Source of the DNA: Xenococcaceae cyanobacterium MO_188.B32
GTDB taxonomy: Bacteria; Cyanobacteriota; Cyanobacteriia; Cyanobacteriales; Xenococcaceae
Length of the DNA stretch: 40,477 nucleotides
Assembly: GCA_030065635.1 (NCBI GenBank)
Contig: JASJDJ010000042.1
Coordinates: forward strand, 1-40,477
Direction of reading: 5' to 3'
Part shown: in pieces, positions 26,203-37,082 of the stretch
How the letters are laid out: every line of letters begins with the position of its first letter
Numbering within the stretch: position 1 is the stretch's first letter
Notes under the pieces: generated by a model
What the model was told of the DNA's origin: nothing
The model's input: the letters and a program-made list of their open reading frames with translations, nothing else
The model's database searches: none
Program-made: the position numbers and the translations under genes

Positions 26203-27303
26203 TTAAATTGACTGGATTCTTTCTACAAGCTTAGCTAATTCTTGCTGAATTTCTCTTAAACTAGCTACTTCAACTACATTTTTTTGTTGGTTTGATTCTA
26301 ATAAAGTGTTGTATTGCTCGTGAATACTATTAATTTTTTGATGAACATTTAATAGTTGTCGAGCTATAGTTTGCATCGAATCTAAACTATGTTCAAAAGA
26401 TTGAGTTGATTTCTGTAATACCAAAGAAGATTGAGAAAACTGATTTTGAGCAATAGATAAATCGGTAGTGGCAGAAGACAATTTTTCGGGGAAACGACTA
26501 TGTTCTATTGTATTAGCAGCTTGTTGAAATATATAAGCACTTTTTTCAATTCTGGCAAAAGCATTATTAATAGATTCTTCAACTGTATCGCCTAACCTGT
26601 AGAGCATATTACTAAAGTCTTGGTTCAAGCGATCGAGTGCTTTTTCCATAGGGTGAGGAGATTTTATTTGGGCTAAATAAACATGATCGACATAGTCTTC
26701 TAGTAAACTAAGTAACTCTAATTTAGCTAACTTGGCATTCCAAATAGTATTAATTACTACAAGTAAAGCACTACAAGCGATCGCAATTAAACTAGTAATA
26801 AAAGCGATCCCCATTCCTTGTAATGGTTTGTTTAATTGTTCTACTAAACTACGGACATCATTAATATCAACTTGGGTAATAGTTTGACTGAGATTAGTCA
26901 GATTGATGGTAATCCCTAAAAAAGTACCTAGTAGCCCAAAAGAAAGGAGGAGATTGGGTAAAATACGACAAAAATCAATAATTGATTCACAGTTGAAACT
27001 TTTTCCAGCCAATTTGTATTTTTCTTGACTGTATACTCCGTCAATAATTACTCCTGTATTAATTTGTTCTACGTTAGCATTATTTTCTTGAATTCTTTGA
27101 TTTAATTTGTTGATAATTGCCGGATATTCTTCTTGTTGATGACCTCTCAACAATTTATTAATGACGTAATTGAGTTTATTTAAATGTTGATAAACACTAT
27201 AGCGTAGTAAAATTGTCAATATCGTTGGTATAATAACCAGAATTATGGTTAAGAAAATTAGAAAAGGAGGTAATAAAGCGAGCGTATTAAATATTTGTTG
27301 CAT
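26203..27303 (-). CDS. MotA/ExbB-like channel protein with coiled-coil tail (ZorA-like)
   Basis: 366 residues. One helix near 10-33, a cytoplasmic loop, then paired helices near 113-135 (NLLLSFGLLGTFLGITINL) and 165-190 (GMGIAFITSLIAIACSALLVV). The GLLGTFLGI string and topology are those of the MotA/TolQ/ExbB proton channel family. A cytoplasmic tail of about 170 residues is rich in heptads (LDRLNQDFSNMLYRLGD, LREIQQELAKLVERI). Long tails mark ZorA, though this one is much shorter than in described Zorya systems. Partner of the downstream MotB-like protein. It could also be an ExbB-type energiser, but the OmpA-domain partner argues against TonB use. Confidence 0.78.
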   Translation of the reverse strand: MQQIFNTLALLPPFLIFLTIILVIIPTILTILLRYSVYQHLNKLNYVINKLLRGHQQEEYPAIINKLNQRIQENNANVEQINTGVIIDGVYSQEKYKLAGKSFNCESIIDFCRILPNLLLSFGLLGTFLGITINLTNLSQTITQVDINDVRSLVEQLNKPLQGMGIAFITSLIAIACSALLVVINTIWNAKLAKLELLSLLEDYVDHVYLAQIKSPHPMEKALDRLNQDFSNMLYRLGDTVEESINNAFARIEKSAYIFQQAANTIEHSRFPEKLSSATTDLSIAQNQFSQSSLVLQKSTQSFEHSLDSMQTIARQLLNVHQKINSIHEQYNTLLESNQQKNVVEVASLREIQQELAKLVERIQSI

Positions 27304-27699: not shown

Positions 27700-27875
27700 A
27701 TATAGGTTATTGGCTCGAAAGTAGCCCTTCGGGTTCACCATTTGACGGCACTCATTACTCGGATGCAAGCTCCGAGTCCGTGCCTCCTCATGGGGGAGAC
27801 CACGCCAGTTCCTACAACGGAGGAAACCTCCGCAACGGACTGGCTCCCCAAGACCGCAATGGTTCACAATTAGCA
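27700..27875. repeat. Dispersed mosaic repeat, copy 2 (inverted, with insertions)
   Basis: Read on the minus strand, this carries GTGAACCATTGCGGTCTTGG, later CTCCCCCATGAG and finally TGGTGAACCCGAAGGGC. These are the same blocks as at 10-105 but separated by extra segments with their own inverted repeats, such as GGAGGTTTCCTCC. It is non-coding. The shared ends with variable interior suggest a modular non-autonomous element. Confidence 0.6.
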
Positions 27876-27906
27876 ATTAGCAATTAGCAATTAGCAATTA
27901 GCAATT
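27868..27906. repeat. 7-bp short tandem repeat (CAATTAG)
   Basis: Five and a half head-to-tail copies of the heptamer CAATTAG/AATTAGC. Heptanucleotide STRR arrays are a known feature of cyanobacterial genomes. Directly abuts mosaic repeat copy 2. Confidence 0.85.
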
Positions 27907-28010
27907 TTAGAAATGTCCTAACGTTAATAAGTATTGCTATAGTCTTCATTTAGGCTCCATATTTAATAGTTAGTTTTTACTCTCAATTTTTTCATAATTA
28001 CAATTTAGCA

Positions 28011-28183
28011 ATATAATCCACAAAATCCTCACATTCTCCCTCTATATTAATAACTAAGATTGCTTCCTAGAGACAACACTCTGCTTTACATATCGCCATT
28101 CAAGTTCTTAAACCTTGCTCAGGTCATCATCAAGAACAGGCAGATAGAAACCTTCCTCCAGATATTTCAGCTGGGGGTTTTTT
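28011..28183 (+). ncRNA. Probable small RNA gene, tandem copy 1
   Basis: A 173-bp unit repeated 234 bp downstream with six substitutions and no gaps by my count. It ends in an intrinsic terminator: CCTCCAG (28155-28161), a short loop, CTGGGGG (28171-28177) and six T. A -10-like TACATA at 28087-28092 would start an RNA near 28098, giving about 86 nt. That RNA has a 5' hairpin (GTTCTT 28104-28109 with AAGAAC 28132-28137, inner ACCT/AGGT) and a single-stranded CU-rich stretch ACCTTCC before or within the terminator stem. No ORF is present. I cannot assign it to a named family. Confidence 0.65.
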
Positions 28184-28244
28184 GTATTCATAGACGATTT
28201 TTAGGATAATACGACTAAAGAGCGGGATAAAACCAATTTTAGTC

Positions 28245-28419
28245 ATATAATCCACAAAATCCTCACATTCTCCCTCTAGATTAATAACCAAGATTGCTTC
28301 CTAGAGACAACACTCTGCTTTATATATCGCCATTCAAGTTCTTAAACCTTGCTCAGGTCATCATCAAGAACAGGCAGATAGAAACCTTCCTCCAGATCTT
28401 TCGCCTGGGGGTTTTTTTT
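28245..28419 (+). ncRNA. Probable small RNA gene, tandem copy 2
   Basis: Second copy of the unit, with its own terminator (CTGGGGG at 28405-28411, then eight T). The -10-like element here is TATATA (28321-28326), closer to consensus than in copy 1. The 5' hairpin is identical in both copies. Three of the six differences fall in the terminator loop or its edge, one in the -10 region and two further upstream. The 61-bp spacer between copies is unrelated. Duplicated promoter and terminator mean each copy can be transcribed by itself. Confidence 0.65.
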
Positions 28420-28644
28420 ATGAGTTCAAATTAATTTAAGTTAGGAAATATTTCCTAGATGAGCGAAAAAGACTGTGGGAACTATTAGTTCGTGCCCTCG
28501 ATGGTTGCTAATTAAATGAAAAAATTTGTGTAAGAACCAAAAATTAAATTACCTATCTATTCAACATAGATTGTTAAATCACTATTTTTTTAGCTCCCTC
28601 TTTGCGTTTTTTCGTTCACCTGAATTCTCTCAACAAAGAATATT

Positions 28645-29787
28645 TTAACGTTCTTCAATAGGAAGATAAGGGGCATCGTGTACTCCCGTATAAACCTGAG
28701 TAGGACGGAAAATGCGATTGACAGCCAATTGTTCTTTCCAATGTGCTAACCAACCAGCAACCCTAGCGATCGCAAAAATAGGCGTAAATAGATCGTTAGG
28801 AATACCTAATTTACGATAAACCAAGCCAGAATAAAAATCGACGTTAGGATAAATACCTTTATGACCTAATTTTTCTTCGATTACTTTTTCTACTTCTAAA
28901 GCAAGATCGTAATAGCGATCGTGACCGGTTTCATCAAATAGCTTTTCGGCTAAACTTTGTAAAATAGTAGCCCTCGGGTCTTTGACTTTATAAACTCGAT
29001 GTCCAAAGCCCATAATCTTTTTCTTATTAGCGATGCAATTTTCTACATAAGGACGAACATTGGCGATCGAGCCAATTTCTTCTAACATTGATAATACTTC
29101 TTCGTTAGCCCCTCCATGTAAAGGCCCTGCCAAAGTACCTACGGCAGAAGCAACAACTGCATAGGGATCGGTTAAAGTAGAAGCTGTCACCATAGCAGAG
29201 AAGGTAGAAGCATTAATCGTATGTTCTGCATGAAGAGTAAGACAAACATCGAAAATTCTGGCTGCTAAAGGATGTGGTTTCCTTTCTGTCAGCATATAGA
29301 GGAAATTTGCAGCATAATCGAGTTCATCATTGGGTTTAACAGCGTCGTTTCCTCTCCGCATTTGGTGAAAAGCTGCTACCATCGTCGGGATTTTAGCAAG
29401 TAATCTTACTACTGCTTTTCTAATATATTTTGGGTCATCTAATGCTCGGCGAGAATAAAACAAACCCAAGGCAGCAGCAGAAGTTTGTAATGCGTCCATG
29501 GGATGACCGGTTTCGGGGAAGCATTTCATCATATCCCGAATACGATATTTTATGCGTCGATGGTAGATAATATCTGTTTGAAATCGCTCTAACTCTTTTT
29601 TGGTGGGTAGTTTATCCCAAATAAGCAAATAAGCTGTTTCTAAAAAACTACCTTGAAATGCTAATTCTTTTATATTAATACCACGATATTCTAATATTCC
29701 TTTTTGACCATCAACATGGCTAATACTCGATTTGGCTGCTGGAATATTTTCTAAACCAGGCTTATATTCACAAAGTGTAGCTGTCAT
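28645..29787 (-). CDS. gltA: Citrate synthase
   Basis: 380 residues. It condenses oxaloacetate and acetyl-CoA to citrate, the entry to the TCA branch that supplies 2-oxoglutarate for nitrogen assimilation. Family motifs include YRGINIKELA near the start, LHAEHTINASTF, the catalytic-region GPLHGGANEEVL and MGFGHRVYKVKDPR, and VDFYSGLVYRKLGI near the end. The length is that of the short bacterial type II-like form. Single gene; no obvious terminator after it. Confidence 0.95.
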   Translation of the reverse strand: MTATLCEYKPGLENIPAAKSSISHVDGQKGILEYRGINIKELAFQGSFLETAYLLIWDKLPTKKELERFQTDIIYHRRIKYRIRDMMKCFPETGHPMDALQTSAAALGLFYSRRALDDPKYIRKAVVRLLAKIPTMVAAFHQMRRGNDAVKPNDELDYAANFLYMLTERKPHPLAARIFDVCLTLHAEHTINASTFSAMVTASTLTDPYAVVASAVGTLAGPLHGGANEEVLSMLEEIGSIANVRPYVENCIANKKKIMGFGHRVYKVKDPRATILQSLAEKLFDETGHDRYYDLALEVEKVIEEKLGHKGIYPNVDFYSGLVYRKLGIPNDLFTPIFAIARVAGWLAHWKEQLAVNRIFRPTQVYTGVHDAPYLPIEER

Positions 29788-36749: not shown

Positions 36750-37082
36750 GGGGCTGTGGCTCAGTTGGATAGAGCAAGCGCCTCCTGAATAATCGGGCAC
36801 TACAGAGGAAACTTTGTAAGTGAATGTGGTCAAATTCAAGGAAGCCTAAGTCTGTCATATAGATAAGGTAATCTTGAGCCAAGCTTTACTAACCTGGGTA
36901 AAGAAGGTGCAGAGACTGGTTATAGGCGATCGACAGGTAAATAAACTAAGTAATTCAGAACCTGTAACATAACGGCCACCACCTAAAGACCACACGTCCA
37001 GGGTGAAGGAATAGTCCAGAGAGTGAGGAAACTCACACCAATCTGAAGCGCTAGGTCGCCGGTTCAAGTCCGGCCAGTCCCG
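36750..37082 (+). tRNA. tRNA-Arg(CCU), split by a group I intron
   Basis: Exons 36750-36786 and 37046-37082 join to a 74-nt cloverleaf. Acceptor arms GGGGCTG/CAGTCCC pair (one G-U), D stem GCTC/GAGC, anticodon stem AGCGC/GCGCT with loop CTCCTAA (anticodon CCU), T arm GCCGG-TTCAAGT-CCGGC. CCA is not encoded. The intron sits between positions 36 and 37, right after the anticodon. The spliced anticodon stem is perfect only with these junctions. Confidence 0.93.
36787..37045 (+). ncRNA. Group I intron in tRNA-Arg(CCU)
   Basis: 259 bp, no internal ORF. The 5' exon ends in U and the intron ends in G, as group I introns require. Core strings are recognisable: CAAATTCAAGGAA near 36830, TGAGCCAAG at 36875-36883 and GGTGCAGAGACT at 36906-36917, all close to the tRNA-Leu intron of cyanobacteria and plastids. 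GTGAG-GAAA-CTCAC at 37023-37036 is a hairpin with a GNRA tetraloop in P9 position. Likely subgroup IC3 and self-splicing. Confidence 0.88.

What the first reader, a model, noticed from the sequence alone, without database searches (positions are those of the whole stretch)
28011..28419. Tandem pair of near-identical small RNA genes, each with its own terminator
Two 173-bp units 234 bp apart differ at only six positions by my count, with no gaps, while the 61-bp spacer is unrelated. Each ends in a strong intrinsic terminator and shares a perfect 5' hairpin. Both -10-like elements are duplicated, so each copy should be transcribed. Substitutions avoid the 5' hairpin and cluster in the terminator loop, as expected if RNA structure is selected. 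The CU-rich ACCTTCCTCC segment could pair with ribosome-binding sites. I cannot match it to Yfr1, Yfr2 or other named cyanobacterial RNAs.
Basis: partly seen in the sequence, partly recalled or inferred. Interest (0 to 1): 0.62.

Follow-up and report, generated by a model that had tools for sequence, protein, structure and literature searches.

The report
Tandem pair of small-RNA genes
The window holds two nearly identical small-RNA genes side by side, each with its own promoter and terminator, and that promoter carries a DNA box that in related cyanobacteria is often found beside the genes of one particular signalling system.

Summary
The repeat is real: 173 bp with exactly six differences, two copies in this genome. 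It is conserved in 6 of 27 genomes of the same family (Pleurocapsales type), single or in arrays. No Rfam match; not PsrR1. The first ~38 nt of each unit are promoter, not transcript: a box YCACARAATNYTCACAWT, then exactly 7 nt, then TANNNT. This 31-bp element has 61 places in 45 of 365 genomes of the order and none read backwards. So the RNA should start near 28056 / 28290 and be ~130 nt, not ~85. Its first 32 nt are nearly invariant and mostly unpaired (a likely seed); it ends in a conserved terminator. Elsewhere the box lies within 10 kb of the gene of an RcaC-like response regulator in 15 of 28 genomes that have both at the cut used. The six small-RNA genomes carry this regulator in one supported subclade. 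I infer a trans-acting sRNA, doubled in dose and switched on by this signalling relay. Transcription, regulator binding and targets are untested; a target search found nothing above control.

The parts
28018..28035 (+). box of unit 1 (CCACAAAATCCTCACATT; YCACA repeated directly at 11 bp)
28043..28048 (+). -10 element TATATT of unit 1, exactly 7 nt after the box
   Evidence: T25, A26, T30 invariant in alignment A3
28056..28184 (+). predicted small RNA 1, ~130 nt (start inferred from the -10 element, a few nt uncertain)
   Evidence: inference
28056..28087 (+). near-invariant 5' block AAGATTGCTTCCTAGAGACAACACTCTGCTTT, likely seed
28104..28137 (+). central hairpin GTTCTT/AAGAAC; near the GTCAGTC/GACTGGC stem of other genera
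28155..28183 (+). intrinsic terminator of unit 1 (stem 28155-28161/28171-28177, T run 28178-28183)
28252..28269 (+). box of unit 2
28277..28282 (+). -10 element TAGATT of unit 2
28290..28419 (+). predicted small RNA 2, ~130 nt
   Evidence: inference
28389..28419 (+). intrinsic terminator of unit 2 (stem 28389-28395/28405-28411, T run 28412-28419)

Best explanation
Two tandem copies of one small-RNA gene. Each is transcribed from its own activator-type promoter (box, 7 nt, TANNNT) into a ~130-nt RNA with a mostly unpaired, near-invariant 5' end, a small AGAG/CUCU hairpin, a central hairpin and an intrinsic terminator. The box is most likely the binding site of an OmpR-family response regulator of the RcaC build (receiver, winged helix, HPt, two receivers, here also GGDEF), encoded elsewhere in the genome (G000:C103) together with a GAF/PAS histidine kinase and a CheY protein. 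When the relay is active both copies are induced, and the RNA pairs in trans, through its 5' end, with unknown mRNAs; duplication raises its dose. Shown by computation: conservation, promoter architecture, terminator, co-occurrence and linkage of box and regulator. Inferred: transcription, start site, regulator binding, sign of regulation, trans pairing.
For: Conserved in 6 of 27 family genomes with different neighbours. Box+N7+TANNNT: 61 places in 45 of 365 genomes, reversed-pattern control 0. TANNNT at offset 7 in 28 of 32 distinct exact boxes at hand, next best offset 6 of 32. In the own genome the box at up to one mismatch has two places, both in these units (control 1). Of 28 box-positive genomes with the regulator at E<=5e-94, 15 have a box within 10 kb of it on the same contig (coordinates). 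Regulator at that cut in 28 of 45 box-positive and 2 of 35 box-negative genomes (Fisher 7.7e-8). Trees of regulator DNA-binding halves: the 15 box-linked ones lie in one clade of 32 rows (support 99/93, 93/91); the six small-RNA genomes form a subclade (100/99 in both); of 18 other family genomes placed only G012 is in the wider clade. Domains.
Against: No transcript data. No fold signal beyond shuffles. In none of the six small-RNA genomes was a box found near that regulator (for five; G011 by coordinates). Kinase and CheY follow the regulator in G000, G007 and G010 but not in G008 and G001 (G011 not fetched). G001 and G008 miss the 5e-94 cut (1.5e-89, 3.5e-90), as do 15 other box-positive genomes; G005 has a box but its best regulator lies outside the clade. 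G012 has a regulator of the wider clade but no box. The cut was chosen after seeing the table; at the listing cut of 1e-85 the counts are 39 of 45 and 13 of 35. The 35 negatives were hand-picked from the same families; tree rows were largely best hits to the query, which favours a clade; related genomes are not independent. Many box sites drive protein genes. Target tests were negative.
Confidence: 0.64

Rival explanations
1. Small-RNA genes as above, but the box is read by another regulator, and the RcaC-like system merely shares the neighbourhood or regulon.
For: These genomes hold several paralogous regulators with similar DNA-binding halves; in the six small-RNA genomes the box is not linked to that regulator gene; 17 of 45 box-positive genomes miss the regulator at the 5e-94 cut.
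Against: Linkage in 15 of 28, one clade, 28 of 45 against 2 of 35.
Confidence: 0.21
2. Cis-acting leader or attenuator: the unit ends in a terminator ahead of a downstream gene, as upstream of ycf66.
For: In four loci (G007:C172, G008, G010, G011) a single unit lies upstream of a ycf66 gene on the same strand (Pfam checked for G007 and G010, the other two by eye); in G180 and G357 a box RNA precedes the regulator gene.
Against: In the window the next gene downstream, citrate synthase, is convergent. Of the two ycf66-domain genes of G000 neither has a unit upstream (the genome-wide search found only the two units). Tandem copies each have their own promoter.
Confidence: 0.07
3. Small-protein gene: a TTG frame beginning LLPRDNTLL.
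For: The first nine residues are the same in eight of nine sequences.
Against: After that the frames diverge and end at different lengths, 16 residues to open at the end of the RNA; the TTG would lie only a few nt from the predicted start, with no ribosome site (by eye).
Confidence: 0.03
4. Mobile or simply duplicated repeat without function.
For: Several copies in G007, at two contig ends and one other place.
Against: Two copies in the own genome, no inverted repeats flanking the unit, one copy in each of G001, G008, G010, G011, near-invariant blocks across four genera.
Confidence: 0.04

Closest known systems
RcaE-RcaF-RcaC relay and its L-box (chromatic acclimation)
   Same: Kinase, small receiver protein and a DNA-binding regulator that acts at a box in target promoters (passages of PMC8256508). 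Recalled: RcaC is receiver-OmpR-HPt-receiver, and the L-box is TTGCACA-N4-TTGCACA, also a direct repeat at 11 bp.
   Different: Other letters (no L-box at up to 3 mismatches near the units); an extra receiver, and a GGDEF domain in G000 and G010; outputs here are small RNAs and other genes.
PsrR1 (SyR1)
   Same: Cyanobacterial sRNA of about 130 nt (passages of PMC2662882, PMC6202907).
   Different: No meaningful similarity; PsrR1 is in the RpaB regulon (passages of PMC13421787).
NsiR1
   Same: Cyanobacterial sRNA; its tandem copies are recalled.
   Different: 14.8 bits against a gathering score of 39, E 3.1, mainly over the terminator.
PhoB/OmpR-type activated promoters
   Same: Direct repeats about 11 bp apart just upstream of a -10 element (recalled for PhoB; PhoP: abstract in search listing, PMC4832192).
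   Different: Own letters and a fixed 7-nt spacing to the -10 element.

Membership tests
Bacterial trans-acting sRNA gene | Own promoter | tested here: met
   (sequence evidence only)
Bacterial trans-acting sRNA gene | Intrinsic terminator | tested here: met
   one search's scan missed it (loop 9)
Bacterial trans-acting sRNA gene | Not coding | tested here: met
Bacterial trans-acting sRNA gene | Transcript exists | not testable with these tools
   no RNA data
Bacterial trans-acting sRNA gene | Pairs with target mRNAs | tested here: inconclusive
   no target found
Any Rfam 15 family | Score at or above the gathering score | tested here: not met
   which named cyanobacterial RNAs are in Rfam was not checked beyond NsiR1
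PsrR1 | Sequence homology to the fabF-hoxH RNA | tested here: not met
RpaB-controlled promoter | HLR1 KTTACAWW-N2-KTTACAWW | tested here: not met
   motif; no match at up to 3 mismatches within 28000-28420
Rre1-controlled promoter | GTNCGGK | tested here: not met
   motif; no match between 24489 and 31043
RcaC-like regulator (G000:C103) | Receiver, OmpR winged helix, HPt, further receiver | tested here: met
RcaC-like regulator (G000:C103) | Binds the box | not testable with these tools
   only co-occurrence and linkage

The most novel reading that the evidence does not exclude
In this lineage an RcaC-type phosphorelay has been rewired so that its main or only direct output is a multi-copy small RNA: the two box sites found in the genome at up to one mismatch are the promoters of the two RNA copies, while in other families the same box drives small proteins and signalling genes beside the relay genes.
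Probability: 0.3. Interest if true: 0.65.

Novelty: new member of a known kind. Interest (0 to 1): 0.5.

Why it matters
It adds a small-RNA family to a little-studied cyanobacterial group and, more usefully, ties it to a sharply defined promoter box and a candidate regulator. The box gives a way to read off the regulon of an uncharacterised RcaC-like system in many genomes, and it predicts start sites that one RNA-seq run can check.

Tried and rejected
Rfam at the gathering and at a permissive cut: nothing. PsrR1: its place found in three genomes with primers printed in PMC2662882, then compared; no meaningful similarity. Rre1 and RpaB motifs and the recalled L-box: not near the units. NrrA/Rre37 as regulator: the listings gave no motif, so neither supported nor excluded. 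Viral contigs: no exact core. Plasmids: one 43-bp match outside the unit. The seven covariance-model hits outside the family match, by eye, mainly through the promoter.

Targets: the complement of 15 nt of the seed at up to 2 mismatches gave 114 places in six genomes, 11 of them the units themselves, so 103 against 108 for the reversed control; I looked at the 30 places held as loci and saw no convincing start-codon site. Duplex energies for 16 gene starts against simple shuffles: fractions at least as good were 0.085, 0.02, 0.33 for ycf66 and 0.24, 0.09, 0.01 for the kinase in three genomes, uncorrected for the number of tests. Coding frame rejected.

Papers: passages of PMC13421787, PMC13232611, PMC2662882, PMC5386190, PMC6202907, PMC8256508, PMC8739951; the rest only as search listings. 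That I found neither this RNA nor the box in print rests (the 16-mer itself: 0 occurrences in the listed papers), 48, 54, 62, 84, 86, 97 in an open-licence library.

Full report
Observation. The own genome (6.39 Mb, 281 contigs) holds these two at E<=0.001. Neighbours are an unassigned gene at 26203-27303 (no Pfam match) and citrate synthase at 28645-29787, both on the minus strand.

Conservation. A DNA search of 27 family genomes gave 12 with a match at E<=0.1: six with long matches (G000, G007, G010, G011, G008, G001) and six with only 18-30 base pieces. A covariance model of nine units found the same six among 388 genomes of the order, plus seven genomes with weaker hits (13 of 388 in all); these match, by eye, mainly through the promoter. 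Records with the exact 26-base core in genome contigs are Xenococcaceae MAG MO_188.B29, Pleurocapsales LEGE 06147 and Hyella patelloides LEGE 07179 (5 stretches); contig lengths equate them with G007, G008 and G001. G010 and G011 may be Stanieria (recalled from chromosome length). In G007 units lie at the ends of two contigs that overlap exactly by 109 nt, so an array of at least three is likely, besides a single copy upstream of ycf66. In G007:C172, G008, G010 and G011 one unit stands upstream of ycf66; in the last three it follows surE (Pfam for G010's surE and G010's and G007's ycf66; the others by eye). Neither ycf66-domain gene of G000 has one.

Promoter and RNA. In the alignment the first block, CACAAAATCCTCACA, is followed by invariant T, A and T at -10 spacing. 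The same block stands before unrelated sequences across the order. The exact 18-mer has 35 places in 28 of 376 genomes, reversed control 1. Of 32 distinct sites at hand, 28 have TANNNT at offset 7; the next best offset has 6. The 31-bp pattern has 61 places in 45 of 365 genomes, reversed control 0. With 1 mismatch in the 27 family genomes the box alone is less clean: 26 places, with 9 for the reversed pattern. In the window the 31-bp pattern matches twice without mismatch, and none of 100 shuffles had two matches at up to three mismatches. So I read box plus -10 as promoter, and the RNA as starting about 28056 and 28290 and ending in the T runs at 28183 and 28419, near 130 nt.

The RNA. Its first 32 nt are nearly letter-perfect in nine units from four genera (one C/T change in G008, one change at the first base of a G007 copy, several changes in another), mostly unpaired but for a 5-bp hairpin. 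The terminator stem is kept in 97.5% of cells, with two pairs that vary on one side and one on both. The central stem is GTCAGTC/GACTGGC in G008, G010 and G011, similar in G001, and GTTCTT/AAGAAC in the window; neither version is kept by all (66.7 to 80% of cells), and the counts do not clearly exceed shuffles (covariation 147 and 44 of 500 shuffles as high). With a regular expression written after seeing them, a YCAGTC/GACTGR-like hairpin was found behind 8 of 59 distinct box promoters: four of this family (G001, G008, G010, G011) and G053, G142, G180, G357; the other 51, which include the window's own units, had none. Common descent of the outside RNAs with this one is possible, not shown.

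Regulator. In G357 and G180, of two other families, box and small RNA stand right before a regulator gene (three receivers, OmpR winged helix, HPt; 56% identical to each other), followed by kinase and CheY genes. Searching 45 box-positive and 35 hand-picked box-negative genomes with the DNA-binding half of this regulator gave a match at E<=5e-94 in 28 and 2 (Fisher 7.7e-8; cut chosen afterwards; at 1e-85 the counts are 39 and 13). G001 and G008 miss the stricter cut. In 15 of the 28 a box lies within 10 kb of the regulator gene on the same contig. I looked at nine of these 15: six read regulator, kinase (partial or broken in two), CheY, box; G052 and G242 have the box behind the regulator without a whole kinase between; G180 has it only in front. 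In trees of 55 and 64 regulator sequences, mostly best hits, the 15 linked regulators fall in one clade of 32 and the six small-RNA genomes form a supported subclade. Of the 21 other family genomes 18 are placed (G006, G020, G022 are not), and only G012 is in the wider clade. In the window's genome the regulator (796 aa, with a GGDEF domain), a kinase (1019 aa) and a CheY protein (124 aa) lie at G000:C103; the same three-gene order is in G007 and G010, but not in G008 and G001. At one mismatch the box sites found in G000 are the two promoters of this finding. The build resembles RcaC with RcaE and RcaF (relay: PMC8256508 passages; RcaC domain order recalled), and the box, like the recalled L-box, is a direct repeat at 11 bp, with other letters.

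Mechanism. The best reading is a trans-acting sRNA, doubled in dose, induced by this phosphorelay. Targets are unknown: 103 complement hits of the seed against 108 in the control, and local tests were inconclusive. Signal and sign of regulation are unknown. Genes behind other box sites include response regulators, kinase-like proteins, DUF305, an slr1658-family protein and a PstS-like protein, small four-cysteine proteins, and at one mismatch hsp20-like and Lon-like genes (both by eye). They suggest signalling or stress but name no stimulus.

Verdict. Real, conserved small-RNA genes of a family new to Rfam; ordinary in kind, with a useful extra: a sharply defined promoter box and a good candidate regulator.

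Noticed in passing
36750-37082: Group I intron (Rfam RF00028, 36774-37038, 80 bits) that by eye interrupts a tRNA gene (tRNA-Arg CCU by my reading); ARAGORN lists no tRNA in the window.
   Followed up: partly
27867-27906: Short tandem array of CAATTAG (period 7 by eye) beside an imperfect inverted repeat 27673-27701/27913-27941.
   Followed up: no
L145 and L043 (G110, G094): Another box-driven short RNA-like element (GCGAAAAAATCCCCTGGATAGAAACGG, then a CCTCCTC terminator); in L043 a second, diverged copy follows directly (by eye).
   Followed up: no
L147, L148 (G110, G094): A further box-driven RNA-like element upstream of a gene that in L147 is of the slr1658 family.
   Followed up: no
among L084-L093, L129, L131, L138, L142: Several box promoters precede small proteins with a CPCC...LLRHIR...YWYC..C.QEMP-like pattern (by eye); the one tested, L131, has no NCBIfam match.
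   Followed up: partly
L022/L023 (G011, G010): A second multi-domain regulator gene lies about 3 kb from the small RNA in these two genomes; the trees put it in another clade.
   Followed up: partly
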